Source: a virus
IMG/VR virus record: IMGVR_UViG_3300033149_006617
Location: 1 to 64,000 of that record
Length of the DNA stretch: 64,000 bases
Strand: one strand, 5' to 3'
Positions 3,350 through 32,248 of the stretch are shown piece by piece; position 1 is the first letter of the stretch; each line of letters starts with the position of its first letter. Under the pieces are notes generated by a model. That model made no database searches and had not been told where the DNA came from. It saw only the letters and a list, made by a program, of their open reading frames with translations. A program made the position numbers and the translations under genes.

Positions 3350-4310
3350 ACGTGCTGTTATATGGTCATTGGTATAATGACAGCCCAGGTAATCTTATTA
3401 TACTATCAAACAATGTGCAGAGAATTTGTTTAGTGAATTGGGATTCAATTGTGCATTTGATGGGCCTAATAGTGGGGTGTGGACGCGTCAAAAAGCCGAA
3501 GAAGTTGCCGAGCAATATGATGTAATTTGCTTCGCAGGATGCGGTCAATTGATACCGTGGGATACTACACCTAGCGGTTGGGCTTGGCAGGGTGATGTAG
3601 ATATATCACCTATTATTGGAAAGAAAGTAATCGCGCTGGCGATAGGGGTCAATGAAAGGCATCCATCAGCCGTAGCAGGTGAGAACATAGCATCCCTTTG
3701 CAACGCGGGGGCGATATTTACCGGCAGGGATGACGTAACCACCAGATGGTTATCGCAATACTGTAACGATGTGATGCTTGTGCCTGATTTGGCATTTCTA
3801 TCTGATAGGATACAGCGTGATTCCACGGGCAAAATAGGGATATTGGTGGGAAAACCCATCCCAGGGCAATTACCAGAAATGATCGCGCAGATTTCGGGTA
3901 AAGATATAGTGTTATTTACACACAGTGAGTTTGACCTCTATCGAAATGTGTGGAGCGATGTAGCGGAGGTTTTACAGCCTACTAACATTGACGAATTGGC
4001 AGAGATATACGCCACTTGCGATGCAATTGTAGGCCATCGCTACCATAACGGTATATTGGCATTAGTTCATAGGAAACCTTTTGTATGGGTTATACGTAAT
4101 ATAAAGACTGGTGCATTTGCAGATACTTGGCCTGTGCTTACAGACCATATTGTACCCAGAGGGGATATGACTATTGACGAATGGGCTGAACAAATTGTGG
4201 CGCGTGTCAGCACGCCATTGTCGAGGTACGAAATGTCATTTGCGGATATGCGCAAACATGAAATAAGGAACAAAATGGCGGCATTATTGGAGAGGAGATT
4301 GTCAAAATGA
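3346..4310 (+). CDS. Polysaccharide pyruvyl-transferase-like protein, 5' end in another frame
   Basis: The main frame (usable from TTG 3426) encodes a pyruvyl-transferase-like protein: CFAGCGQLIP, VIALAIGVN, AIFTGRDDVTTRWLSQ, then AIVGHRYHNGILALVHRKPF, the conserved GxRxHxxI-like region near the C-terminus. The N-terminus expected for the family (MNVLLYGHWYNDSPGN) starts at ATG 3346, overlapping the previous stop, but in a different frame. Joining the two needs one extra base near 3392-3396; a second C there would read GNPYYTIKQCAENLF. So the gene is either broken by a 1-nt deletion, carries an assembly error, or is shifted during translation. Family members transfer pyruvate ketals to sugars. 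Confidence 0.6.
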
Positions 4311-5308
4311 CTATATTGATAACTGGCGGATGTGGATTTTTGGGGCACCACTTGGTAGAACATGTACTTAAAAATACCGATTGGGATGTAATAATTTTCG
4401 ATAAGTTGACCTACGCTAGCAGCGGGTATGACAGGCTGAGGGATATTAATGTGTTTGACGACCGGCGGGTAAGGTGTTTTGATGTTGATATAACTCAGCC
4501 CATATCAGAGGGGATAGGAAAAGAAACACCACACGTGGATTATATTGTTCATGCTGCTGCAGAAACACATGTGGATAGAAGCATTGAAGATCCTATACCG
4601 TTTGTTATGACGAATGTCGTAGGGACGACTAATATGCTTCAGTTTGCCCGTTTGTTGCCGGATTTAAAATGGTTTCATTACTTCTCTACTGATGAGGTAT
4701 TTGGGCCAGCACCGTCGGGAGTGGCGTACAAGGAATGGGACAGATATAATTCCGGTAATCCATATGCAGCGTCAAAGGCAGGCGCGGAGGAAATAGTATT
4801 AGCGTTCGGCAATACATATAAGTTACCGATATTTGTGACCCATACCATGAATTTATTTGGTGAACGGCAACATCCTGAGAAGTTCATTCCAAAGGTGATC
4901 CGTAGCGTTCTGAAAGGGGATGTAGTCACCATCCATGCTGACCCCACCAAGACCAAATCTGGAAGTCGCTTCTATTTACATTGTAGGAATGCCGCTGCTG
5001 CTACGTTGTTCCTATTAGAAAACGCCGAACAAAGGGACAAATACAACATAGTAGGAGAAAAGGAAGTCAGCAACCTTGAACTGGCGCAATTCATTGCAGA
5101 TGTGCTTGGTAAACCATTGTCTTATAGACTTGTGGACTTCCATAGTAGCAGACCTGGCCATGACTTGAGGTATGCTCTGGACGGCAGTAAGTTGGCCAGT
5201 ATGGGCTTCAGCTTTCCCAAAACGTTTGAGGAAAGTTTAGAAAAAACTATATTGTGGACGATAGAGCACCTAGAGTGGTTGGGGCCGAAGTGGGGAATAC
5301 CCTTGTGA
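4307..5308 (+). CDS. Nucleotide-sugar 4,6-dehydratase (RmlB-like extended SDR)
   Basis: 333 residues of the extended short-chain dehydrogenase family. Rossmann motif ITGGCGFLGHHL at the N-terminus binds NAD; VHAAAETHVDRSI is the hallmark of dTDP-glucose 4,6-dehydratases; FSTDEVFG carries the Thr-Asp-Glu catalytic triad of dehydratases; YAASKAGAE supplies the Tyr-x3-Lys pair. Length is normal. It probably makes a 4-keto-6-deoxy nucleotide sugar. ATGA overlap with the previous gene and GTGA overlap with the next show one operon of sugar genes. Epimerase/decarboxylase activity is less likely given the TDE motif. Confidence 0.85.
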   Translation: MTILITGGCGFLGHHLVEHVLKNTDWDVIIFDKLTYASSGYDRLRDINVFDDRRVRCFDVDITQPISEGIGKETPHVDYIVHAAAETHVDRSIEDPIPFVMTNVVGTTNMLQFARLLPDLKWFHYFSTDEVFGPAPSGVAYKEWDRYNSGNPYAASKAGAEEIVLAFGNTYKLPIFVTHTMNLFGERQHPEKFIPKVIRSVLKGDVVTIHADPTKTKSGSRFYLHCRNAAAATLFLLENAEQRDKYNIVGEKEVSNLELAQFIADVLGKPLSYRLVDFHSSRPGHDLRYALDGSKLASMGFSFPKTFEESLEKTILWTIEHLEWLGPKWGIPL

Positions 5309-6522
5309 ATGCGTTATTTTATACCCACAACGATAGCGAGTGGTATGCATTCGCCGCAGTGAGCAAGGAATTAGAGCGGCGAGGGTGGCATACGGTAGCA
5401 ATGACTATGTATGATAAGGATAAGGTCATACTTGCCCGTGAGCCTAAGAAGAGATTAATTGGGGGCAAAGAATATGCCGTATGTCGGCCCCTCACTATCG
5501 GCGGAAAAATGAGCCGCATTTCACCCCGTATCGGAACAATGGCTGATATGGTGGTTGAATTCGGCCCTGGTGGCCCTACGGCAACGGAATTGTTTGACTT
5601 GGTGAAGCCTGATATATTGATATTGCGGACTGAACGAGGATTTATTTGGAGAGAATTGGCGGAATTAGCCCGCAGGAAAGGTGTGCCGGTGGCGATAGTC
5701 GCATGCGCAATGTGTCATCTACCAGCATATACTGAAGGGCCGTTAGGCGGTGTTGCCCCATTCCTGGGTGATGTTCATTGTATAATAAGTCAAGGAGCCT
5801 ATGATATATTGAAACATCGAGGTTATAAGTATTTGGATAAGGTAGTAGTAACCGGCACCGCAGTGCCGGAGGCTCCTTGGCTGGATGTGACGGGCAATCA
5901 ATGGCAGCCAGATAAGGAAGCAGGCCCGATATTATTCACTGAGCAACATGATTTTCCGCCCGACCAAAAGGCCAGAATAAATATGCTCAAGGCGCTACAT
6001 TCATTAGCATTGGCATTCCCAGATCGGCAAGTATTAGTGCGCCCTCACTTTGAACGGGCATGGAACGATGAATTGGATTTGAACTTGATGCTGGAATACC
6101 CTGTAGGAATGCTTAAGTTACCGGCGGTGGCCCCTAACTTAGCAATGGCTAATCGAGGGGTGTGTATATTTGATGCGTGCAGAGCCGCCTGGCGGATGGT
6201 GACAGTAGCGTCGCTGTCATCGGTAGATGCCGCTGTATGTGGCACACCAGTTGTGAGTATGGGATGGTTGCATGACTTTCCTAGCCCCGAATATAAACCT
6301 ACAGATGTAGGTGAACCAGCGGGGTCAACCTCGTATTGGCATAGACCATTGCAATGGTTCTTTGATGAATCAGTGCCGGTAGCTATGTCGGTGGACGAGT
6401 TGATATATGATGTGGAGGAGGCTTCCCTTGGCCCGCGTTTTTTGGAGTATTATTGTGGGGTAGATGGTGAGCCTAGTTCGGTACGCATCGCAGACGTATT
6501 GGAGGACCTTGTGGATGCCTAG
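5305..6522 (+). CDS. Putative GT-B-fold glycosyltransferase / surface-carbohydrate protein
   Basis: 405 residues from GTG 5305, chosen because it overlaps the upstream stop as GTGA and has a GGGG stretch 9 nt upstream; the longer frame from 5254 would overlap by 55 nt. Two Rossmann-like halves are visible: LFYTHNDSEWYAFAAVSKEL at the N-terminus, and a C-terminal part with ILFTEQHDFPPDQ, VLVRPHFE and SSVDAAVCGTPVVSMG, which resembles the donor-binding region of CDP-glycerol/sialyl-type GT-B transferases. Donor and acceptor cannot be assigned. Context points to assembly of the same glycan. Confidence 0.55.
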   Translation: MNALFYTHNDSEWYAFAAVSKELERRGWHTVAMTMYDKDKVILAREPKKRLIGGKEYAVCRPLTIGGKMSRISPRIGTMADMVVEFGPGGPTATELFDLVKPDILILRTERGFIWRELAELARRKGVPVAIVACAMCHLPAYTEGPLGGVAPFLGDVHCIISQGAYDILKHRGYKYLDKVVVTGTAVPEAPWLDVTGNQWQPDKEAGPILFTEQHDFPPDQKARINMLKALHSLALAFPDRQVLVRPHFERAWNDELDLNLMLEYPVGMLKLPAVAPNLAMANRGVCIFDACRAAWRMVTVASLSSVDAAVCGTPVVSMGWLHDFPSPEYKPTDVGEPAGSTSYWHRPLQWFFDESVPVAMSVDELIYDVEEASLGPRFLEYYCGVDGEPSSVRIADVLEDLVDA

Positions 6523-7297
6523 GCCAACGTTTGAGGAGCCACCTGAATCTGCAGATTTGTCATCATCGCTCACTGTGGCGTTGGTGGTAGCACGGGCAGG
6601 CAGTAAATCCCTCCCTGGGAAGAATATTGTTCCTATACACGGTGTGCCGTCTGTAATGTATGCAATAGAGGCGGCACTGAGGTGCAAATCCATAGATGAA
6701 GTTTGGATTAGCACCGATTGTAAGACGTGCATGTCATTGGCAAGGGAACGCGGTCTGGGTATCATATACAGGCCGATAGCCTATGCTAAGGATAATTCCA
6801 GCATACAGTTGGCATGGCTACACGCATTAGGATTGCTCAAAAAAATCGGGCGGAAGGTACAAACTATGGTCAGCCTCCAAGCGGATAGCCCTATCAGGGA
6901 AATAGACCTGCTCCAGCGGGCAATATTGGCTCATAGAAATAATGAAGATGGCCTTCCTGCGTTATCGGTATTGATTGACCGAGTGCATGTACCTGCATGG
7001 GCGATGACGATGATGGGTGATGGCACCATTGCGGCTGCTGAGTGCTATAAGAGTAGTCCTGACCATAATTCGTTCCCGCCTGGAATATGGCCAACAGGAG
7101 GTGTGGTTGTTTTTGACGCTAAGATAGCAGGGAAATCAATGGCTAATGGCCAGGGCTTGAGCGACTATTATGTGCCGATTGAGGTCCCCATCGCTGTGGA
7201 TATTCACAGCAAGCATGACGTAGAATTGGCAGAGGCCATTCTGGATAAATGGCCAAACAAATTCATAACAATAAAGCATGGTGAGAATAATGACTAA
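6515..7297 (+). CDS. CMP-sugar synthetase-like cytidylyltransferase (NeuA/KdsB type)
   Basis: 260 residues from ATG 6515 (GGAGGA 8 nt upstream). VVARAGSKSLPGKNIVPIHG matches the nucleotide-binding P-loop-like motif of acylneuraminate cytidylyltransferases; VWISTDC, SIQLAWLHAL, VSLQADSPIRE and DIHSKHDVELAE occupy the places of the usual substrate and metal motifs. Such enzymes load a sugar acid onto CMP. Whether the sugar is a sialic-type acid, Kdo or an amino sugar cannot be read here. Its start lies just before the stop of the preceding gene. Confidence 0.75.
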   Translation: MPRPTFEEPPESADLSSSLTVALVVARAGSKSLPGKNIVPIHGVPSVMYAIEAALRCKSIDEVWISTDCKTCMSLARERGLGIIYRPIAYAKDNSSIQLAWLHALGLLKKIGRKVQTMVSLQADSPIREIDLLQRAILAHRNNEDGLPALSVLIDRVHVPAWAMTMMGDGTIAAAECYKSSPDHNSFPPGIWPTGGVVVFDAKIAGKSMANGQGLSDYYVPIEVPIAVDIHSKHDVELAEAILDKWPNKFITIKHGENND

Positions 7298-8831
7298 AGC
7301 GACTGCGATAGCACGATACTTGAAGGAGAAGGGTGCACCTGTATTTACTCTTTTGGGCGCGACTATTTCACCCGTCCTTGCAGCGTTGGGTAGAGAGGCC
7401 GAGGAATTGGTAGTGCCGGTATGTAATGAGTTTACTGCTAGCACAGCGGCAGATGGCTATGCAAGGGCTTCGGGTGAGCCTGCGGTAGTCCTTGTATCTG
7501 GGGGGCCTGGCGCAGTTACAGCCGCTCCTGGCATAGCCGATGCCTATGAGTCAAGATTTCCAATGGTAGTGCTGGTGGGGCAAGAACCTACTGAACATGA
7601 TGGTAGGGAAGTAGTGCATCATTGTGAGCACATTAATATCTTCGAGCCGATAACTGTTGCACAATACATATTGACGCACAATGAAAGTGCTAGAGGGGTG
7701 CTGGATTGGGCATTTGAGCGGGTGATTAGGTCGCGTCAGGGACCGGTCCTGATTGAACTTCCCCGTGATGTACAGGAAAGCACGGAATGTCCTGCGTCAC
7801 CAATCGTCCCTACATCGGAATGTTACTTTGATATAGATGTAAAGGAAGAACTTGGCGAGCTGGCTTCAATGATACGGCAAAGCCGAAAACCTGCTATTTT
7901 AGCGGGAGGAGGGATTGTATCTGCAAATGCGTGGCCATTCCTACGAAAATTCGCGGAGAAGATAGGGGCCGCAGTTTTACTGACGCATACTGCTAATGGA
8001 GTAATTCCTCCAGACCATCCTTGCTATGCTGGTATGGCTCCTATGCCACATGCCAGAGAGATATGGGAGAATGCGGATTTGCTTATTGCTATAGGGACGA
8101 GATTACCCAGCATGTGCACCAACAGTTGGCAATACCCCAGGCCACCTAAGGTGGTGCATATTGACGAGGACCATAACGTGCTTGGGACTGAGTATGAGCC
8201 TGATTTGACGATATGTGATGATGCATGGAACGTATTGTCAGATTTGGTGGGGAGAGATTATGGGGAACACGCTTTATGGCATGTACCGCCTGAATGCCCA
8301 TTGGGCAGGGAAATGCGGTTGATCGCGGATGCATTGGAGGAAGAGGTCCCTCAGCAACGGGTGTTGGCATTAGGGCTGAATCGCGTAGGATCTGCCTTGC
8401 ATGTATTGTGGAACAGGGCTAAGCGCCCTCGAAGGCTCATTAGAGTGAGTGGATTTGACCTGTTAGGGACGGCGTTTGGATTTGGTATAGGGGCATATTA
8501 TGCCACAAAGGAACCTCCAGTTTGGGTGTCTGGCGACGGCGAATTTCTATTCAATCTATCTGACCTTGGTACGATGCGCAGATTGCCTGTAGGTACTGTG
8601 GGTGTTATTGTGTGTAATGGGACGTATGAGGCCGTGAGGGAGTTTTCCATGCGGGCGCAAAATTCCGAGTTCTGTTGTAGGGTGCCCGCAGAAGATATAC
8701 CTGCTATTTGCAGGGCGCTTGGCTTTGATGTAATCATGTCGAATTGTGACAGTTTTAGGATGGACTTGCGGCAGGCTCTTTCCGCAGATAGGCACACCAT
8801 TATCTGCCTACAAATAAGCGGAGATGCATAA
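7290..8831 (+). CDS. Thiamine-diphosphate-dependent enzyme (acetolactate-synthase-like)
   Basis: A complete ThDP enzyme of 513 residues. N-terminal pyrimidine-binding domain with the catalytic Glu in CNEFTASTAADGYARA (about residue 50) and GPGAVTAAPGIADAY; middle domain; C-terminal pyrophosphate domain with WVSGDGEFLFNLSDLGTM and the Asn of VIVCNGTYEA. ATG 7290 is preferred over 7278. Family members act on pyruvate or 2-oxo acids. In a sugar locus, relatives attach two-carbon units to keto sugars for branched-chain sugars; that role is inferred. A metabolic ThDP enzyme is unusual in a phage. Confidence 0.8.
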   Translation: MTKATAIARYLKEKGAPVFTLLGATISPVLAALGREAEELVVPVCNEFTASTAADGYARASGEPAVVLVSGGPGAVTAAPGIADAYESRFPMVVLVGQEPTEHDGREVVHHCEHINIFEPITVAQYILTHNESARGVLDWAFERVIRSRQGPVLIELPRDVQESTECPASPIVPTSECYFDIDVKEELGELASMIRQSRKPAILAGGGIVSANAWPFLRKFAEKIGAAVLLTHTANGVIPPDHPCYAGMAPMPHAREIWENADLLIAIGTRLPSMCTNSWQYPRPPKVVHIDEDHNVLGTEYEPDLTICDDAWNVLSDLVGRDYGEHALWHVPPECPLGREMRLIADALEEEVPQQRVLALGLNRVGSALHVLWNRAKRPRRLIRVSGFDLLGTAFGFGIGAYYATKEPPVWVSGDGEFLFNLSDLGTMRRLPVGTVGVIVCNGTYEAVREFSMRAQNSEFCCRVPAEDIPAICRALGFDVIMSNCDSFRMDLRQALSADRHTIICLQISGDA

Positions 8832-15309: not shown

Positions 15310-16179
15310 ATGAAACGGGTACTAGTAGCTGGCGACGTGATGCTTGATAAATATACATTTGTAGCCGACAATGGGAGGTCGGCAGAGGCCCCCATTCTTT
15401 GTTGGCGCGAAATTGACGAGCCTAAATATTTCCTAGGCGGTGCGGCAAATGTCGCGTATCATCTGGCTCAATCCGGAATGGATGTATCCCTGCTTGGGAC
15501 GATAGGACGCGATGACGAAGGGGTGTTGGTAGAAAATATATGCAATGAGAACGGCATCCAGCCGTTTCTGGTTAGGGTTGATGGTAGACCAACGACTCTG
15601 AAGCACAGAATAATGCACTCTCACCGGCAACTTATACGCATAGATAGGGAATCGCGGGGGGCCGTAGATGATACCACCATAGAAATATTGACGGGGCTTC
15701 TGGGTGGTATAGAAGTTGACGGCATAGTAATAGCAGATCATGCGAAGGGGATGTTGGTGCCTCCTTTGTGCGCGAAAATTTCCGCGATGGGAGAAGGCAT
15801 ACCTATCATCCTAGATCCCCATCCCAACGGCTATCGTGATTGGGAATACCTAACCGGTATAACACCCAATATAGGAGAGGCAGAGTTGATAGTAGGGCGG
15901 CATGATGTGGATTACATGGCCAACGCCCTGCGTAGCATATATAAGACCGATTCCGTATTGATTACGATGAGTGAAAAAGGCGCATATTATCTGGATGGGC
16001 ACACTGAGTGCCAAATCCAGGCTCCACAAGTAGTTACTGTTGATGTATGTGGGGCAGGGGATTTTTTGGTGGCTACTTGGATGGCGAAAATTTTAGATGG
16101 GCTCCTACTTTTGGATGCCGCAAAAATCGCGGTAGAAAAGGCATCAAAATCAACCGGAATATATCGCTTCCAAAGGTAA
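15310..16179 (+). CDS. PfkB-family sugar kinase, HldE/RfaE kinase-domain-like
   Basis: 289 residues. Signatures: LVAGDVMLDKY at the N-terminus, FLGGAANVAYHLA (substrate-binding GG), LKHRIMHSHRQLIRID, as in heptose-7-phosphate kinases, and the catalytic VDVCGAGDFLVAT, where the usual DTTGAGD Thr residues are replaced. It would make heptose 1,7-bisphosphate or phosphorylate a related sugar. The nucleotidyltransferase half of HldE is absent. It sits alone between the tape measure and tail genes, with four other sugar modules elsewhere, and two GT9 enzymes could use its product. Confidence 0.75.
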   Translation: MKRVLVAGDVMLDKYTFVADNGRSAEAPILCWREIDEPKYFLGGAANVAYHLAQSGMDVSLLGTIGRDDEGVLVENICNENGIQPFLVRVDGRPTTLKHRIMHSHRQLIRIDRESRGAVDDTTIEILTGLLGGIEVDGIVIADHAKGMLVPPLCAKISAMGEGIPIILDPHPNGYRDWEYLTGITPNIGEAELIVGRHDVDYMANALRSIYKTDSVLITMSEKGAYYLDGHTECQIQAPQVVTVDVCGAGDFLVATWMAKILDGLLLLDAAKIAVEKASKSTGIYRFQR

Positions 16180-23057: not shown

Positions 23058-24146
23058 ATGATGAGACCACAGATAAATATAACCACTGCAAATATCGTTA
23101 GGGATAACGAAGGAAACATTATATTCAAGCAACAAGTTGCTCCTATTTTTCAGCCTAAAAAAATGAATATATTGTTAGACCCAGCAACTGCAAATGGCAC
23201 TGTGGGGATAGTAAGAAATGCCGGTCTAGGAGATATTCTAATGATTACTCCTGCTATAAAGGCGCTCAAGAAACGCAGGCCGGATTTAGAAATTGATTAT
23301 TGGGTTCCCCCCTATCACATAGGGCTGTTGGACCATAATCCATATTGCAATGGGAAGGCCCTCTCTGAGGGGATGGCACTCCCACCTGATAATGTATGTG
23401 ATGAGTATGATCATTTCTGTATATTGAATAATTATGTTGAGATGCACCAATTGAACTTTACCATTCCCAGGCCGGATTTATTTGCGATGGCATTAGGGGT
23501 AACAATTGAGGATACCACTCCTCTTTATTACATAGAGGAATCGGAAAGGGATTGGGCGTTAGGATGGCTTTTAAGCCAAGGGCTCGATCCTAACAAGAAA
23601 ACAGTGGGTATTTGTGGGCGCGGAATTTGGTTCTGGCGCTCGTGGCCCATTCGTCACATAAAAACCGCTACACTTATGCTCGTTGACGATTATAACGTTG
23701 TCATAACAGACCATAACAACCAATTTGATATAGGCGTTCCAGGGCCTATTTATGCTTGTGGATTTCCACTAAGGCAAATTGCAGCGATAATGAGCCATTT
23801 CGACGTTATGGTCAGTCCCGATTCTGGGATGTACCACCTGGCTGCTGCCCTTGGTGTTGATATGGTGGTATTGTTCAGCGCCATCAAGCCGGACTTACGG
23901 GTAAGCAAATATCATAACTTTACTGCAATCGCGGCGGGCTTGCCATGCCAGCCATGCAACAGTGATGATGGAAGACTTATGGCTACATGCGGTGCCAAAT
24001 GCATAACAGAACTAGACCCATCATTGGTTGTGGCTGAGATAAAGAGGAGATTGGAAGGAAAAGCCCAAGTAAAAGAATATGTCACGCAAGGGATGCAACT
24101 CCCAGGGTTTGTGGCTAGTGGTGAAAAATTTCGTGTAGTGGGTTGA
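23058..24146 (+). CDS. Family 9 glycosyltransferase (heptosyltransferase-like)
   Basis: 362 residues. After a 45-residue lead, GLGDILMITPAIKALKKRRP is the N-terminal GT9 signature; VGICGRG and VMVSPDSGMYHLAAALG (donor site) follow; CQPCNSDDGRLMATCGAKC provides the Cys cluster seen in many GT9 proteins. Substrate is likely an ADP-heptose or similar donor. It follows tail genes, apart from the main sugar cluster. The promoter of the lysis genes overlaps its stop codon. Confidence 0.8.
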   Translation: MMRPQINITTANIVRDNEGNIIFKQQVAPIFQPKKMNILLDPATANGTVGIVRNAGLGDILMITPAIKALKKRRPDLEIDYWVPPYHIGLLDHNPYCNGKALSEGMALPPDNVCDEYDHFCILNNYVEMHQLNFTIPRPDLFAMALGVTIEDTTPLYYIEESERDWALGWLLSQGLDPNKKTVGICGRGIWFWRSWPIRHIKTATLMLVDDYNVVITDHNNQFDIGVPGPIYACGFPLRQIAAIMSHFDVMVSPDSGMYHLAAALGVDMVVLFSAIKPDLRVSKYHNFTAIAAGLPCQPCNSDDGRLMATCGAKCITELDPSLVVAEIKRRLEGKAQVKEYVTQGMQLPGFVASGEKFRVVG

Positions 24147-24171
24147 CATTTTTGCCCAATTGGTGTATCAT
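24143..24171 (+). promoter_or_regulatory. Sigma-70-type promoter of the lysis module
   Basis: TTGACA at 24143-24148, a 17-nt spacer, and TATCAT at 24166-24171. It overlaps the GT9 stop codon and precedes the holin-like genes by about 27 nt, so it likely drives lysis transcription. Confidence 0.7.
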
Positions 24172-26758: not shown

Positions 26759-27394
26759 ATGGCAATCCAAGTGTATCAGGAGGATATAGCCCGTGTGGCC
26801 GAAAAAGTAATTACCGCCCGCCAATCAGGGGCTAGGAGCTATACTATTGGAGAAACAGTATTCAGGCTGGATGTTGGTGGCTATTGCGCACGTTTTGTAA
26901 GGCAATGCCATGAGGCGGCGATGGGCCTGCATCCCTTCAGATGGGAATTTTGTGCCCCTGACGCCATTGAAATGGAAGAGAATCTAAGGTTGGCCCGCCA
27001 TCAAGTAGAAAACGCTCAGCGCGGGGACATCATTGCATTCAATCGCAATAGCGGCCCACACGGGCATATTGGCATTTATTTGGGAAACGGCAAGGTTGCC
27101 GAGAATACCATTTCAGGCAGGAGGGGTAATCCACGCAAGCCAGGGACTAAAATTTCCCGCATAGATGAAATAGGCCGGTGGAGAATAACCGGCTTCTACC
27201 GCCCGTTACCCAATGGAGACGAAATAAGGCTTATTAATTTGGATTCGCCAGGTTATACCCAGGTCATAGAATGTAATCTATCCATAGAACAGGGAACCGC
27301 AAGGGCTGATGTCCGTCCCTTGTTAGAGGCACTAGGTTATGAGGTGATCCCCCATATAATTGACCAGAGGAAGATTTATGTGAGGAAAATTTAG
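26759..27394 (+). CDS. Cysteine cell-wall hydrolase (CHAP/NlpC-P60-like endolysin)
   Basis: 211 residues. Catalytic Cys in VGGYCARFVRQCHEA near residue 45; His in GPHGHIGIYLGNGKVAEN near residue 101; QRGDIIAFN just before, the usual order of CHAP/NlpC-P60 peptidases. Residues 150-211 form a copper-amine-oxidase-N-like stalk domain (RADVRPLLEALGYEV). It would cut peptidoglycan peptides at the end of infection. The gene meets the polymerase gene tail to tail, sharing stop-codon bases. Confidence 0.7.
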   Translation: MAIQVYQEDIARVAEKVITARQSGARSYTIGETVFRLDVGGYCARFVRQCHEAAMGLHPFRWEFCAPDAIEMEENLRLARHQVENAQRGDIIAFNRNSGPHGHIGIYLGNGKVAENTISGRRGNPRKPGTKISRIDEIGRWRITGFYRPLPNGDEIRLINLDSPGYTQVIECNLSIEQGTARADVRPLLEALGYEVIPHIIDQRKIYVRKI

Positions 27395-29766
27395 CCTTTC
27401 TTTTGGCGTTTTTCTTCGCCCCAAGCCGATGTTACGGCCATGTCAATCGGCATAGAAATATGGATGAATGGCATGGGGGCTTCCATCATTTCCTTGATGA
27501 TTTCCTTGGCTAGCGGTACGCTCTCTTCCAGCACCTCAAAACACAATTCATCGTGTGTCTGGAGCACTACATGAGCGTCCAACCCTTGGGCCGCGAGGGC
27601 GTACTCACACCGTAATTGGGCCACAAATACCAAATCCGACGCTCCACCCTGAATAGGGGTATTGCATGCCTCGCGCTTAGCCTTTTCTCTGCGCCATTTA
27701 TCGGGGCTATTTGCACCAGGTATATGTCTTATCCTGCCAAGCGGATTTCGGACTATTCCAGTCCTCACCGCTGTCTTCCATGTATCATTCTGCCAGCGCC
27801 TTACCATAGGAAATCTACCGAGGAAATTCTCTATGAGAGCCTCCGCTTCACCAACTGTAACCCCGATGTTTTTTGCTAGACCATAAGGGGTCTCACCATA
27901 TAGGATCCCGAAAACAACTGCCTTGGCCCTTGTCCGGTCACTTGGTGTTTGCTTTTCCTTTGGTATGCCGAAAACGGCTTTGCACATTTCTGCATGTATA
28001 TCTTCCTGCCGTATGCTGGCAAGCATAGCAGGGTCGTTTGCTACCGCTGCCTGTACTCGTACTTCTGCTTGCTTGAAGTCAGCCTCAATAAACTTGTAGC
28101 CCTCCCTGGGGACGAACATCTTACGCTCTTCTTTGGGGACATTTTGGAGATTAGGATTACTGGAACTAAGCCTTCCTGTAACCGTTCCACCAACATCCTC
28201 ATCGCGCTCGGCTTCCGCCCGCGCTAGATGGTAGTTGGTATGGATTATATCCTCGCCGATGTAACGTTGCACGTAAGTGCTGTTGGACTTTACAATGCTT
28301 CTATATTCCAATATGAGGTCTATTATGGGATGTTCTAATGCTTTTAATGTACTCTCATCGGTACTCCACCCTGTTTTAGTAGCCTTGACTGGCTGGAGCC
28401 CCAATTCATCAAAAAGTATTTCCTGTAATTGTTTTGGGGAACCGATATTAAATTCTCTTCCTGCCATAATGTAGATTTCTTTCTTTAGTTCCTCCAGCCG
28501 CGCTTTTTGTTGAACGTTGGTCTCCTCAACTGTACTTGTATCTATTCGCACTCCCCTAAGTTCAACGTTTATAAGGCTCCTTTGCATTGGCATCATTATA
28601 CAACGCATGAATTTGTCTAACTTCAATTGCTTTAGCTTCTTACTAAACACTTTATAAAGCCTTATAGTAGCATCAGCATCTCTCGCCGCATAAGGCTCCA
28701 ATATTTTCGGTGGAATGGAGCCGAAGTTCCTCTTCTCCTCTGGGATTTTTTTGTTGTTTTTAATGTGGCTAAACAGATCGTCAACTTCCCTCGACCATGC
28801 TGGCATCCTAGCATACCTCACCGCCGCATGCTTGAGGGAATGAGATTCGAGTTCATTAATAAGGTGATGCGCAAGCAATGTATCCCAATAGTATCCATTT
28901 ATCTTCATGCCTTTGTTGCGGAGCACCTTTACATCAAATGCACCAAAATGTGCCACTTTCCTCCATTTGTAGGAGCCAAATAATTCTAATAGCCTCTTAG
29001 CAATCTCCAACTTGTCATGCTCCCCCCACACCGATTTAAATTCGCGCATAATAGGGAGCACATATCCTCTCCCAGGTTTATCCGAAAACGAAAAGCAAAT
29101 AACATCTGTATCATAAGGATTAGTGCTGGTAGTCTCCAGATCAAATGACCAGATTTTGGAGCCATAGAGCACATTCCACAAGTCGTCCAACTTATCGTGG
29201 GTATCAATGATTATTACGTTGGTGTCAACTGTTTCTACTTTTTTGCCGACCAAAAAATCGCGCAAAGAACGGATACCCACCATAAACTCCGGTATATTAC
29301 CTGGATTATGTAGGCAAGCAGATGGATGAATTATGGGGAGGAGCATACAGTCAAATTCTTCGTTGTATTCCCATATCGCATTGGCCTTATTTATACCGGT
29401 CCTGCCGGTCAATGTTTGATATGCAACGGCACCGAAGGCCACAATTGCCTTGCGTGGATACTTTCTGATGACCTTCTCCAGGTATTCCCTGCACGCATTG
29501 ATGGTAGCAGTTGTAGCCTTGTAATTTTCGCCGCCAGGAAAGCACCTCGTAGCATTCGTAACCAAAAATGACTTCCTATCAAGTCCTACAGATGCTAATG
29601 CCTTATCCAGAAACTTACCGGCAGGACCTGTAAAAACCCTGCCGGTCTCGTTTTCCGTTTCTCCAGGCTCCTGGCCTACCATCACAATATCAGCCTTGGC
29701 GGGGCCAGTGTCCTTTACCTTTCCCTGTAGCCCCAAATGATTCAATGGGCAGTCATTACATCCCAT
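27391..29766 (-). CDS. Uracil-DNA glycosylase (family 4) / DNA polymerase I fusion
   Basis: 791 residues. Residues 1-180: family-4 UDG with Cys pair (MGCNDCPLN), VGQEPGETENETGRVFTGPA, FLVTNATRCFPGG, IHPSACL. Residues 195-370: 3'-5' exonuclease, WSFDLETTSTN (DxE) and YAARDADATIRLY (YxxxD). Residues 400-791: family-A polymerase, motif A IEADFKQAEVR, motif B RAKAVVFGILYG with Phe at the 762-equivalent, motif C VLQTHDELCFEV. No 5' nuclease domain. The start overlaps the stop of the small upstream gene. The N-terminal UDG resembles SPO1-type phage polymerases and may tether repair to replication. Confidence 0.9.
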   Translation of the reverse strand: MGCNDCPLNHLGLQGKVKDTGPAKADIVMVGQEPGETENETGRVFTGPAGKFLDKALASVGLDRKSFLVTNATRCFPGGENYKATTATINACREYLEKVIRKYPRKAIVAFGAVAYQTLTGRTGINKANAIWEYNEEFDCMLLPIIHPSACLHNPGNIPEFMVGIRSLRDFLVGKKVETVDTNVIIIDTHDKLDDLWNVLYGSKIWSFDLETTSTNPYDTDVICFSFSDKPGRGYVLPIMREFKSVWGEHDKLEIAKRLLELFGSYKWRKVAHFGAFDVKVLRNKGMKINGYYWDTLLAHHLINELESHSLKHAAVRYARMPAWSREVDDLFSHIKNNKKIPEEKRNFGSIPPKILEPYAARDADATIRLYKVFSKKLKQLKLDKFMRCIMMPMQRSLINVELRGVRIDTSTVEETNVQQKARLEELKKEIYIMAGREFNIGSPKQLQEILFDELGLQPVKATKTGWSTDESTLKALEHPIIDLILEYRSIVKSNSTYVQRYIGEDIIHTNYHLARAEAERDEDVGGTVTGRLSSSNPNLQNVPKEERKMFVPREGYKFIEADFKQAEVRVQAAVANDPAMLASIRQEDIHAEMCKAVFGIPKEKQTPSDRTRAKAVVFGILYGETPYGLAKNIGVTVGEAEALIENFLGRFPMVRRWQNDTWKTAVRTGIVRNPLGRIRHIPGANSPDKWRREKAKREACNTPIQGGASDLVFVAQLRCEYALAAQGLDAHVVLQTHDELCFEVLEESVPLAKEIIKEMMEAPMPFIHISMPIDMAVTSAWGEEKRQKKG

Positions 29767-29885
29767 TAACGATTCCTACCTTTACGCCCACCTTTGGGCG
29801 GATTGCATCCTCCTCGGCCTCTATTGGCCCCTACGCCTCTTCCACTGCCGTCTTTCTTTGGAACGCCCTTTTTTGATTTGGCCAT
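29766..29885 (-). CDS. 39-residue Gly/Arg/Lys-rich protein
   Basis: ATG at 29885 with GGGAGGTGAT upstream; the stop overlaps the polymerase start (TAATG). Composition is Gly, Lys and Arg with repeated GRG/GGRKGR motifs (RGVGANRGRGGCNPPKGGR), like RNA-binding RGG tails. Too short for a known family. Between thioredoxin and polymerase in the Ro60 operon, so RNA or DNA binding is a reasonable guess. Confidence 0.6.
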   Translation of the reverse strand: MAKSKKGVPKKDGSGRGVGANRGRGGCNPPKGGRKGRNR

Positions 29886-29891
29886 ACTCTA

Positions 29892-30227
29892 TCACCTCCC
29901 ATCATTTAAGGCCCTCTCGATTGCTTGGATAATTTGCTCCTTAGATCGAGACCCCACAATCATCTCGGCCACGTTGCCGCTCTTAAGAAGTAACAATGTC
30001 GGGAGGCTCCTAATACCAAAGCGTGTGGCTAGCCTTGGATTGTCATTTACATCTACCTCCCCGACCCTAAGTCGCCCACTATATTCATTAGCGATAGCCT
30101 CTACGATAGGGGCAATTATTTTACATGGCTTACACCAATCCGCCCCAAAGTCCAAAAGCACCGGCTGTTTCGATTGAATAACCTCCGATTCAAAGTTATC
30201 AGTTGTAATCGTGATGATGTCAGCCAT
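29892..30227 (-). CDS. Thioredoxin
   Basis: 111 residues, a complete thioredoxin: VLLDFGADWCKPCKIIAPIV with the redox CxxC (CKPC instead of the usual CGPC), VDVNDNPRLATRFGIRSLPT with the cis-Pro, and LLLLKSGNVAEMIVG. Normal length. It may reduce ribonucleotide reductase or other proteins. Placement just before a family-A polymerase recalls T7, where host thioredoxin is the processivity factor, but I see no thioredoxin-binding-domain insertion to support that. Confidence 0.9.
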   Translation of the reverse strand: MADIITITTDNFESEVIQSKQPVLLDFGADWCKPCKIIAPIVEAIANEYSGRLRVGEVDVNDNPRLATRFGIRSLPTLLLLKSGNVAEMIVGSRSKEQIIQAIERALNDGR

Positions 30228-30242
30228 TTACTTGCCCCCGTT

Positions 30243-31850
30243 TCAAGCCCGAATAAAATCAGAAATCAAATTTGGTGTAGCCATATCAAATCCCACCACG
30301 TCCAACATACCAGCATCGTTAGGATCAGCAATTGAAAATCCTGTGCTGGTCATAGCTACCACAATTAATTTAGCAGGGATGCCTGTCTCTCGGCGATATT
30401 TCTGCAATGCTTGGCAAGGATGAATGTCACCTGCCCATGTTTCATTATCGGTATAAATGACAAACGCATCAATCTCCAAGCCATCCTTGAGCGCGGACAG
30501 CATGGGCAAGGCACAATCAGTGCCACCCCACGGTATATCCTCAATTTGACGAATAACATCATCAAGCCGTTGCCTGCTACTTATGCTAACCGGCACTAAG
30601 AGGGAATCCTCCCACCAATTAGAAGGCCCGCTAGCAAAAGCCGTCACAATAGAATTAAGCTCCACCCGTTGAGTAACCAATGCCATAGCAGCAGATGCCC
30701 CCCTGGGGGTTAGGTTAGGAATACCACTAACACCCGCAGCCCCCATAGAGCCTGATACATCCAATGCCAACATTATCCGTTTATTCGTAGGTTCTACATT
30801 ACCAAATGCCATGTAGAATGCTCCATCAAGAGCATCTACAATAGACGCTATAGGTGCCCATCTCAATTTCCCACGAGCTCCCTGACCGGATTTATATGTA
30901 GTCAATGCCGCCAGCACGCCGATAGGATGCACCCGTGCTCTACGGAGTGCCGCTTCATCAGATACCTTTTCAATTACCTTTGACGTTACACTACTCAGTG
31001 GTTTGAGTGCCCCATTTGCCGTCATGCGCCCCAAATTGCGGATGAGCGCGGTGAGTGGCATATTGGGCACTAATGCTTGCCAAACATCCGGAGAGTTAAT
31101 TACATCACCAGGTACCATCTCCCAAGTAACCCACGGATGGTTATTAATTATTCTTATTGTTTCCTTGGGATTTCGCGCTTTCTGGAGAGCCTCGAATACT
31201 TTGATAGTTTCGGGTAGGTCCTCAGTGCTCTCGTGCTGAGTAACCCAATGGAACAACGCATTTAATGCGGGATCAATTGCCTTCGGATGGGCTAATCTCA
31301 ACAAATCCCTATGAGTCCAGCCATATCTTTGGCGATATTTGACTATTTGGTAGGCAAGTCTCTCAACTTCCTTATCAGTATACCATCGGGCTACTGCCCG
31401 TCTAAGGCTCCGCCCCCAGCCACGAAACGACTCTACTGCATCTGCAAATTGAAAGATATGGGTTCCGATACGGCATACTTGTGGGAGCGCATCCAATGCC
31501 GCCTTCTTGGTCTTATCATCCCCCATACCTGCAGCCATCGCTAGCACAAAGATGGCAGCGTCATTTTTAGGTGCTCTGCCCTCCTCACTGATTTCAACGG
31601 TTCGATTAACTACTCGTTGCCCGTCTGCTTGTATGCACCGCAGGACCGCCTGGGCATTATCCTTGGTGAATTCATGCTCACCCACATAGTAAGTACCACC
31701 CTCACTTCCCAGAATCAAAAAGCGGTCAAGTCGGACCCAATCATCAACCTCAAATACATACCCACCCGCATCGTTTACTACCTGAGACTTACCTGGGATC
31801 GGCTCTGATTGTGGGGTCTTTTGGGTTTGGAAGTGCTTTGCGTACCGCAT
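30243..31850 (-). CDS. rsr: Ro60 / Rsr orthologue (TROVE-vWA RNA-binding protein)
   Basis: 535 residues, full length for the family. ATG 31850 is 8 nt from GGAG; ATG 31856 is too close. The N-terminal TROVE HEAT-repeat ring includes VDDWVRLDRFLILGSEGGTY, VLAMAAGMGDDKTKKAALD, RTHIFQFADA-like (GTHIFQFADAVESFRGWGR) and YRQRYGWTHRDLLRLAHP, all Ro60 hallmarks. The C-terminal vWA domain (from about residue 360) has the MIDAS: ALDVSGSMG, GGTDC, YTDNETW. Ro60 binds misfolded RNAs in its ring and Y RNAs outside, and in bacteria tethers PNPase. The gene is preceded by three Y-RNA-like RNAs. Confidence 0.92.
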   Translation of the reverse strand: MRYAKHFQTQKTPQSEPIPGKSQVVNDAGGYVFEVDDWVRLDRFLILGSEGGTYYVGEHEFTKDNAQAVLRCIQADGQRVVNRTVEISEEGRAPKNDAAIFVLAMAAGMGDDKTKKAALDALPQVCRIGTHIFQFADAVESFRGWGRSLRRAVARWYTDKEVERLAYQIVKYRQRYGWTHRDLLRLAHPKAIDPALNALFHWVTQHESTEDLPETIKVFEALQKARNPKETIRIINNHPWVTWEMVPGDVINSPDVWQALVPNMPLTALIRNLGRMTANGALKPLSSVTSKVIEKVSDEAALRRARVHPIGVLAALTTYKSGQGARGKLRWAPIASIVDALDGAFYMAFGNVEPTNKRIMLALDVSGSMGAAGVSGIPNLTPRGASAAMALVTQRVELNSIVTAFASGPSNWWEDSLLVPVSISSRQRLDDVIRQIEDIPWGGTDCALPMLSALKDGLEIDAFVIYTDNETWAGDIHPCQALQKYRRETGIPAKLIVVAMTSTGFSIADPNDAGMLDVVGFDMATPNLISDFIRA

Positions 31851-31873
31851 GTTCATCTCTCCTTAGATTTTAA

Positions 31874-31977
31874 TTCTGGGCAAGGGATGCGATGCGGAGT
31901 ATTGCCCCCATATTGGGCTAGCAAGGCATATACCTTGCAGGAATCGAACCTGATAACCACATCGCTCCGGCCCAGAA
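31874..31977 (-). ncRNA. Y-RNA-like RNA 1 with tRNA-mimic domain (YrlA type)
   Basis: A 104-nt RNA. Ends pair: 31971-31977 with 31874-31880 (7 bp). Next a conserved internal bulge (CCGGAG on the 5' side, ATCCCTTG on the 3' side), then a stem 31957-31965 with 31889-31897 (8 of 9 pairs), then TTATC. Inside it: T-arm with loop TTCGATT (31938-31952), a closed stem in the acceptor position (31922-31937), TA, and a GCCC/GGGC D-arm (31904-31918). T-arm, acceptor, D-arm order is circularly permuted relative to tRNA, as known for bacterial YrlA. It ends 11 nt before the Ro60 ribosome site. Confidence 0.8.
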
Positions 31978-31991
31978 AATTTAGTGCTTAA

Positions 31992-32118
31992 TGTCGGGCA
32001 AGGGATGTGGGGCGGAAATTCGCGCTCTACCATTGAGCTACTGGGGAGACCCCCAGACGGGACTCGAACCCGCAACCACGCCATTCCAAGTGGATAACCG
32101 CCCCACTCCGGCCCGACA
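31992..32118 (-). ncRNA. Y-RNA-like RNA 2 with tRNA-mimic domain (YrlA type)
   Basis: A 127-nt RNA with the same plan. Terminal stem 32112-32118 with 31992-31998 (7 bp); bulge CCGGAG opposite CATCCCTTG; second stem 32098-32105 with 32008-32015 (8 perfect bp); then TTATC. tRNA-like part: T-arm 32057-32073 with the classic loop TTCGAGT, a 6-bp stem closed by GTCT (32041-32056) replacing the acceptor ends, T8-A9-like TA, then GCTC-AATGGTA-GAGC (32024-32038), an almost perfect tRNA D-arm. There is no free acceptor or CCA, so it cannot be a normal tRNA. The sequence between D-arm and Y stem stands in for the anticodon arm. Confidence 0.85.
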
Positions 32119-32126
32119 AACATAGG

Positions 32127-32197
32127 GTTCTGGATAAGTAAACGGGTAGCCGAGTGCTCTTTGTCCTAAAGATAACGGCTCCCCTCCGACCCAGAAC
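32127..32197 (-). ncRNA. Minimal Y-RNA-like RNA 3 without tRNA mimic
   Basis: A 71-nt RNA, first in the transcript. Terminal stem 32191-32197 with 32127-32133 (7 bp), 5' bulge GTCGGAG and 3' CTTA-containing bulge as in the other two, second stem GGG-A-GCCG with CGGC-TA-CCC, then TTATC, and only a short hairpin (TCTTT/AAAGA) in place of the tRNA-like domain. Thus it holds only the presumed Ro60-binding part, like metazoan Y RNAs. On the plus strand it mimics a tRNA acceptor ending in ACCA by chance, but has no T-arm. Confidence 0.65.
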
Positions 32198-32219
32198 ACC
32201 AAAATTTCAATGCTATCGT

Positions 32220-32248
32220 AGTCTACACCAATTTGGGTGGTTTGTCAA
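32220..32248 (-). promoter_or_regulatory. Promoter of the Y RNA-Ro60-polymerase operon
   Basis: On the minus strand TTGACA (32248-32243), a 17-nt spacer and TAGACT (32225-32220). Transcription would start near 32213, about 16 nt before Y RNA 3. No other promoter was seen before the Ro60 gene, so the RNAs and the mRNA probably share a transcript that is processed. Confidence 0.7.

What the first reader, a model, noticed from the sequence alone, without database searches (positions are those of the whole stretch)
30243..32248. Phage-encoded Ro60 ribonucleoprotein locus: three Y RNAs plus TROVE protein in one unit
A full-length Ro60 (TROVE ring plus intact vWA MIDAS) is directly preceded, on the same strand, by three structured RNAs with a shared plan: a terminal 7-bp stem, a conserved bulge (CCGGAG-type opposite CCCTTG-type), a second stem, then TTATC. 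This matches Y RNAs, the known partners of Ro60. A single promoter sits before the RNAs, so RNAs and protein are probably co-transcribed and processed, which keeps them balanced. Having three Y RNAs in a phage replication operon is a coherent, self-contained RNA quality-control or RNA-remodelling system.
Basis: partly seen in the sequence, partly recalled or inferred. Interest (0 to 1): 0.92.

Follow-up and report, generated by a model that had tools for sequence, protein, structure and literature searches.

The report
Phage Ro60 gene with three Y RNAs
This uncultivated phage carries the gene for the ring-shaped RNA-binding protein Ro60 right behind three small RNAs of the kind that partner it (Y RNAs), a known type of phage and bacterial gene cluster; the middle RNA imitates a whole transfer RNA, anticodon arm included, which goes beyond the tRNA likeness described in the sources I could read.

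Summary
Window 30243-31850(-) encodes a full-length Ro60 (Pfam TROVE + vWA_Ro60; PDB Ro60 E=1e-131). Directly upstream on the same strand are three separate stem-loop RNAs at 32128-32196, 31992-32118 and 31874-31977. A covariance model of minimal Y RNAs built without any window sequence finds the first RNA as its only match in 64 kb (39.5 bits). A model of tRNA-like Y RNAs (training set included the window pair) finds only the other two (114.8 and 66 bits); Rfam YrlA matches the middle one at 54.9 bits, below its cut-off. One promoter precedes the RNAs; none was found between them and Ro60.

As a kind of locus this is known. 344 public phage records encode a relative, and 30 of 37 related viral loci with detectable Y RNAs have two or more. 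"Three Y RNAs in a phage" is therefore typical.

About 22 related loci, not the window, carry an un-permuted form: a tRNA with the Ro60-binding stem inserted before the anticodon arm. I found neither in the papers held, but key primary papers were unavailable. Function is inferred.

The parts
32220..32248 (-). Promoter-like site TTGACA-N17-TAGACT, about 24 nt before the first RNA
   Evidence: 10/12 match; perfect -35 with 17-nt spacing; 25-bp box shared with 24143-24167(+) in another intergenic gap. Consensus match only.
32128..32196 (-). Y RNA 1 (minimal type, no tRNA-like module): 8-bp terminal stem, bulge, inner stem, GUUAUC
   Evidence: Only match in 64 kb of model R2, built without it, 39.5 bits, E=6e-6; fold z -3.1
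31992..32118 (-). Y RNA 2 (tRNA-like, permuted YrlA type with anticodon-arm mimic)
   Evidence: Rfam YrlA 54.9 bits, below cut-off 69; model R1 114.8 bits (in training set); fold z -4.4
32081..32093 (-). Anticodon-arm mimic in Y RNA 2: CCA-CUUGGAA-UGG (3 bp, 7-nt loop with U33, A37, A38), 10 nt before the T stem as in tRNA
   Evidence: Register statistics over relatives; it is the 13-nt insertion relative to Rfam YrlA (alignment)
32057..32073 (-). T-arm mimic of Y RNA 2 (GCGGG UUCGAGU CCCGU)
32041..32056 (-). Acceptor-stem mimic of Y RNA 2, closed by a loop (permuted)
32024..32038 (-). D-arm mimic of Y RNA 2 (GCUC AAUGGUA GAGC)
31874..31977 (-). Y RNA 3 (reduced tRNA-like: T arm, acceptor hairpin, weak D arm, no anticodon arm)
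   Evidence: R1 66.0 bits (in training set); Rfam YrlA 22.3 bits, nematode sbRNA model 25.8 bits; fold z -5.9
30243..31850 (-). Ro60 protein (TROVE ring + vWA with MIDAS); an in-frame ATG also lies at 31856
29892..30227 (-). Thioredoxin gene, 15 nt after Ro60, likely same transcript
   Evidence: Pfam PF00085 1.5e-29
29766..29885 (-). 39-aa basic Gly/Arg-rich ORF, likely same transcript
   Evidence: position only
27391..29766 (-). DNA polymerase A with fused N-terminal uracil-DNA-glycosylase-family domain, likely same transcript
   Evidence: Pfam DNA_pol_A 1.6e-104, UDG 2.3e-27

Best explanation
A phage-encoded Ro60 ribonucleoprotein cassette. One transcript from the promoter at 32248 carries three Y RNAs followed by the Ro60 message (supported by layout; expression not shown). 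The hairpins are cut out and held by Ro60 through the conserved terminal stem and bulge (inferred from the conserved motif and the conserved Y-RNA-contact residues). By analogy with Deinococcus Rsr, Y RNA then gates the Ro60 ring and, through its effector module, tethers Ro60 to a host enzyme such as PNPase, steering decay of structured RNA during infection (inferred). The two tRNA-like modules would be handled by host tRNA enzymes; the minimal RNA would be a simple Ro60 gate or stabiliser (inferred). Identity as a Ro60/Y RNA locus is about 0.95 likely; the confidence given is for the whole mechanism.
For: Ro60 identity and both domains. Xenopus Y-RNA contacts K170, R174 and H187 (residue list from memory) align with K171 and R175 (invariant) and H188 (at least 90%) among 21 sequences. 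All three RNAs match Y RNA models, one in a test blind to it. Strong covariation. RNAs and Ro60 sit side by side in phages and bacteria. GUUAYC lies upstream of 55 of 75 permuted tRNA-like modules found without using it, against 0 of 75 control windows. Rsr-Y RNA-PNPase in Deinococcus is described in PMC8394870 and PMC7790460.
Against: No expression, processing or binding data. The phage's host is unknown, so a PNPase partner cannot be named. PNPase tethering has been shown in Deinococcus only (PMC7790460). The promoter is a consensus match in a region with about as many such matches as shuffles give.
Confidence: 0.6

Rival explanations
1. The tRNA-like Y RNAs are decoys or competitive inhibitors of host anticodon nucleases (or bait for tRNA-modifying enzymes); Ro60 stabilises them. 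The anticodon arm is there because the target enzyme reads it.
For: Anticodon-arm mimic in exact register in 21 of 53 motif-independent tRNA-like Y RNAs and 14 of 27 viral ones in the motif-based set; 13 different anticodons among 20 representatives but mostly A37/A38. Competitive inhibition of an anticodon nuclease was proposed for Salmonella YrlA (PMC7790460).
Against: Many tRNA-like Y RNAs lack the arm, including the third RNA here. Anticodon triplets are diverse, which does not point to one nuclease. Not tested in any phage.
Confidence: 0.2
2. Y RNAs only gate and stabilise Ro60, which works as a chaperone for misfolded phage or host RNA without a nuclease partner.
For: Matches the animal Ro60 model (established knowledge); the first RNA has no effector module.
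Against: Two RNAs keep elaborate tRNA-like modules that simple gating does not need.
Confidence: 0.15
3. The hairpins act in cis as a structured leader: Ro60 binds its own mRNA and tunes its own expression; the RNAs are not separate partners.
For: RNAs lie between promoter and Ro60 with no promoter between them.
Against: Y RNAs also lie downstream of Ro60 in relatives (for example L041, L047, L062), and the intricate tRNA mimicry is not needed for a leader.
Confidence: 0.1
4. Decayed tRNA genes that resemble Y RNAs by chance.
For: tRNA-like arms present; weak Rfam tRNA hit of 18.5 bits.
Against: ARAGORN finds no tRNA; full Ro60-binding stems with strong covariation, and a blind model hit to the RNA without tRNA arms.
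Confidence: 0.02

Closest known systems
YrlA RNA of Salmonella and relatives (Rfam RF02553; PDB 6CU1)
   Same: Ro60-binding terminal stem plus circularly permuted tRNA-like module with T, acceptor and D arms; next to Ro60
   Different: Y RNA 2 has 13 extra nt that form an anticodon-arm mimic and scores 54.9 against a 69-bit cut-off; Y RNA 3 scores 22.3
Ro60/Y RNA loci of mycobacterio-, gordonia- and streptophages
   Same: Ro60 at about 37-52% identity; tandem Y RNAs upstream
   Different: Different gene neighbours; this phage has thioredoxin and DNA polymerase A downstream; host unknown
Deinococcus radiodurans Rsr-Y RNA-PNPase (RYPER)
   Same: Homologous Ro60 (PDB 2nvo, 5e-121); similar RNA plan at the Ro60-binding end (but Rfam Deinococcus_Y_RNA only 18.4 bits, cut-off 80)
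   Different: PNPase partner not shown; three RNAs of three types here
Nematode sbRNA / vertebrate Y RNA
   Same: UUAUC after the inner stem; Rfam RF01656 scores Y RNA 2 at 34.2 bits (cut-off 38)
   Different: No tRNA-like module in those eukaryotic RNAs (established knowledge)

Membership tests
Ro60 / Rsr (TROVE-vWA) | TROVE HEAT-repeat ring and C-terminal vWA domain | tested here: met
Ro60 / Rsr (TROVE-vWA) | MIDAS DxSxS intact | tested here: met
   D364, S366, S368 invariant
Ro60 / Rsr (TROVE-vWA) | Y-RNA-contact residues conserved | tested here: met
   Xenopus K170/R174/H187 aligned with K171/R175/H188; residue list from memory of the 1YVP work
Y RNA | Ro60-binding stem with conserved bulge | tested here: met
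   All three RNAs; covariation in relatives
Y RNA | Encoded beside Ro60 | tested here: met
Y RNA | Bound by Ro60 as a discrete RNA | not testable with these tools
   Needs expression and binding data
YrlA (Rfam RF02553) | Reaches the curated score | tested here: not met
   54.9 and 22.3 bits against 69. So not filed as RF02553 members, although Y RNA 2 aligns over the full model and has its architecture
YrlA-type architecture | Permuted tRNA-like module (T arm, closed acceptor, D arm) | tested here: met
   Y RNA 2 fully, Y RNA 3 in reduced form, Y RNA 1 not at all
RYPER machine | Y RNA tethers Ro60 to PNPase | not testable with these tools
   No host known; needs pull-down
Phage origin | Phage genome context | tested here: met
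   IMG/VR record of 67,755 bp; PHROG tail, tape-measure, helicase, primase and integrase hits

The most novel reading that the evidence does not exclude
Phage and bacterial Y RNAs of this type are complete tRNA mimics, anticodon arm included, with the Ro60-binding stem inserted between D arm and anticodon arm; and they exist in two circularly permuted topologies, one of which (related loci, not the window) has ordinary tRNA ends and is read by Rfam as a tRNA. This would make them candidate decoys for anticodon-reading enzymes or substrates of tRNA-end processing.
Probability: 0.5. Interest if true: 0.78.

Novelty: new member of a known kind. Interest (0 to 1): 0.52.

Why it matters
The locus adds a further phage lineage with a self-contained Ro60/Y RNA set and shows that such sets travel between phages and bacteria. 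The anticodon-arm mimic in the middle RNA, and the un-permuted tRNA-Y hybrids in relatives, make a standing proposal testable: that tRNA-like Y RNAs compete with real tRNAs for anticodon nucleases or other tRNA enzymes.

Tried and rejected
(1) Rfam at gathering score: no hit in the window. (2) ARAGORN on virtual un-permuted molecules to prove the anticodon arm: not discriminating, 67 of 74 real against 58 of 74 with a shuffled arm; replaced by register and swap statistics. (3) A first register script used a wrong linker cut and returned one item; later scripts also read gapped alignment files, so the count was repeated on clean files. (4) An un-permuted reading of the window's own array (R3 hits of 32.5 and 29.3 bits) was rejected: it joins the D arm of one Y RNA to the T arm of the next, while the acceptor strands pair within Y RNA 2 itself. 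(5) Ro60 tree: the window's exact neighbour is unresolved. (7) Chen 2014, Sim & Wolin 2018 and Sim 2020 are not held, so novelty of the anticodon arm and the un-permuted form could not be checked against them.

Full report
What was checked. The window is part of a 67,755-bp IMG/VR virus record. On the minus strand, 30243-31856 encodes a 537-aa protein with Pfam vWA_Ro60 (2e-60) and TROVE (2e-47); PDB hits are Xenopus Ro60 1yvp (1.4e-131), 9nen (7.8e-130) and Deinococcus Rsr 2nvo (5e-121). The likelier start is the second ATG (31850), 8 nt after AGGAG. The AlphaFold2 model has mean pLDDT 90.6. In 21 aligned sequences the MIDAS residues D364, S366, S368 and residues K171, R175 are invariant and H188 is at least 90% conserved; the last three align with Xenopus K170, R174, H187, which I recall as Y-RNA contacts.

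The three RNAs. Upstream on the same strand lie hairpins at 32128-32196, 31992-32118 and 31874-31977. Each has an 8-bp terminal stem, a bulge motif, an inner stem and GUUAUC. Folding energies beat every shuffle (z -3.1, -4.4, -5.9 in that order), and the whole leader folds as three separate hairpins. Rfam at gathering scores gives nothing; at relaxed thresholds YrlA matches the middle RNA over its full length at 54.9 bits (E 1e-11, cut-off 69) and the one next to Ro60 at 22.3. I built covariance models from related loci. R1 (22 tRNA-like RNAs, window pair included) finds only these two in the window, 114.8 and 66.0 bits. R2 (25 minimal Y RNAs, no window sequence) finds only 32128-32196, 39.5 bits, E 6e-6; this is the unbiased test of the RNA that no Rfam Y RNA family matched. 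On the unfitted alignment A1, 87% of cells pair (67% shuffled), 165 cells changed on both sides (56 shuffled), and sliding the partners by one column drops the covariation score from 0.53 to 0.11-0.13.

Context. A promoter-like TTGACA-N17-TAGACT ends about 24 nt before the first RNA. A 25-bp box of the same design occurs once more in the window, in an intergenic gap at 24143(+) (2 found, 0.21 expected), which suggests a phage promoter type. No promoter-like site lies between the RNAs and Ro60. Downstream, thioredoxin, a 39-aa ORF and DNA polymerase A follow closely on the same strand. PHROG matches to tail, tape-measure, helicase, primase and integrase families confirm a phage.

How common it is. 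344 of 50,697 phage records encode a relative of this Ro60, mostly phages of Mycobacterium and Streptomyces; 48 IMG/VR loci and 70 genome-collection loci were fetched. Tandem Y RNAs accompany Ro60 in most. Of 37 viral loci with model hits, 30 have two or more and 21 three or more, up to nine (merged). The virus label changes 17 times on the Ro60 tree, so the cassette has probably moved repeatedly; the window's own position is unresolved. Literature already mentions phage Ro60 and YrlA-like RNAs (PMC7765460, PMC7824862). From memory, Chen et al. 2014 reported Y RNAs near Ro60 in over 250 bacterial and phage species with at least one tRNA-like Y RNA each; that paper could not be opened. The locus is therefore a new member of a known kind.

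The anticodon arm. YrlA is described as mimicking the D, T and acceptor arms (PMC8394870) in circularly permuted order (PMC11472068). In the middle RNA the 13 nt that Rfam's YrlA model treats as an insertion are CCA-CUUGGAA-UGG: three pairs closing a seven-base loop with U33, A37 and A38, exactly ten bases before the T stem, as in tRNA. Among 55 non-redundant tRNA-like Y RNAs defined with GUUAYC, 20 (14 of 27 viral) meet U33 + purine 37 + three pairs at this register; shuffles give 0.47 +/- 0.69, and other offsets 0-2, except +1 with 6. A38 (17 of 20) and A37 rather than G37 (18 of 20) were not required; 13 different anticodon triplets occur. In 53 modules found without the GUUAYC motif, 21 meet the test (other offsets 0-1, except +1 with 8), and three-pair stems occur in 23 against 6.0 +/- 2.0 when 3' strands are swapped among sequences. 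The Ro60-binding stem thus sits between the D arm and the anticodon arm of a whole-tRNA mimic. The window RNA next to Ro60 has the T, acceptor and weak D arms but no anticodon arm; the promoter-proximal one has no tRNA module.

The un-permuted relatives. A descriptor scan and model R3 find RNAs with ordinary tRNA order (acceptor, D arm, then the Ro60 stem as 3' half-loop-5' half, GUUAYC, T arm, acceptor) in about 22 related loci: phage contigs L004, L005 (with L006 and L038), L007, L008, L029, L050, and bacteria including Sorangium, Minicystis, Kofleriaceae, Byssovorax and Brocadia. In 14 aligned cases all seven acceptor pairs form in every sequence and all seven show compensatory changes. Shuffled loci gave none. 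Rfam's tRNA model calls several of them tRNAs at 43-52 bits. On the Ro60 tree the label changes 8 times in the quick tree, at least twice on well-supported branches. The window does not have this form.

Mechanism. Shown here: identity of the protein, presence and conserved structure of the RNAs, adjacency, tRNA mimicry. Inferred: co-transcription, processing, Ro60 binding, gating of the ring, tethering to a nuclease. The RYPER analogy rests on Deinococcus only (PMC7790460). The same paper suggests that YrlA's tRNA-like domain might competitively inhibit an anticodon nuclease; an RNA that keeps an anticodon arm is a better candidate for that role, which makes it the main rival here.

Noticed in passing
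L004:3506-3629, L005:4583-4709, L007:6755-6873, L008:4723-4892, L029:4783-4907, L050:4785-4909, L052:3361-3487, L054:7815-7938, L062:7003-7124, L064:4166-4286 and others: Un-permuted tRNA-Y RNA hybrids: full acceptor, D and T arms in tRNA order with the Ro60-binding stem between D arm and anticodon position. Strong covariation; Rfam reads some as tRNA.
   Followed up: partly
L109:4462-4686: Deinococcales MAG un-permuted tRNA-Y RNA with an encoded ...CCGCUCC-A-CCA 3' end and a long extra hairpin in the Ro60-stem loop.
   Followed up: no
L070:3266-4167: Four tandem un-permuted tRNA-Y RNA copies before Ro60 in a proteobacterial MAG.
   Followed up: no
window 31930-32173: In tandem arrays of permuted Y RNAs the D arm of one RNA and the T arm of the next form an un-permuted frame, which suggests how one topology could turn into the other.
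   Followed up: partly
window 24143-24167 (+) and 32224-32248 (-): The same 25-bp promoter-like box TTGAC-N7-CC-N-AATTGGTGTA in two intergenic gaps; possibly a phage promoter class.
   Followed up: partly
window 31991-32120: The Rfam nematode sbRNA model RF01656 scores the phage Y RNA at 34.2 bits (cut-off 38), sharing GGUUAUC and both stems, although PMC4726728 calls bacterial Y RNAs not homologous with the vertebrate Y RNA clades.
   Followed up: partly
window 27391-29766 (-): DNA polymerase A with a fused N-terminal uracil-DNA-glycosylase-family domain.
   Followed up: no
window 4307-8831, 15310-16179 and 23058-24146 (+): Genes that look by eye like nucleotide-sugar, cytidylyltransferase, TPP-enzyme, sugar-kinase and glycosyltransferase functions amid the tail genes; possibly surface-sugar modification.
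   Followed up: no
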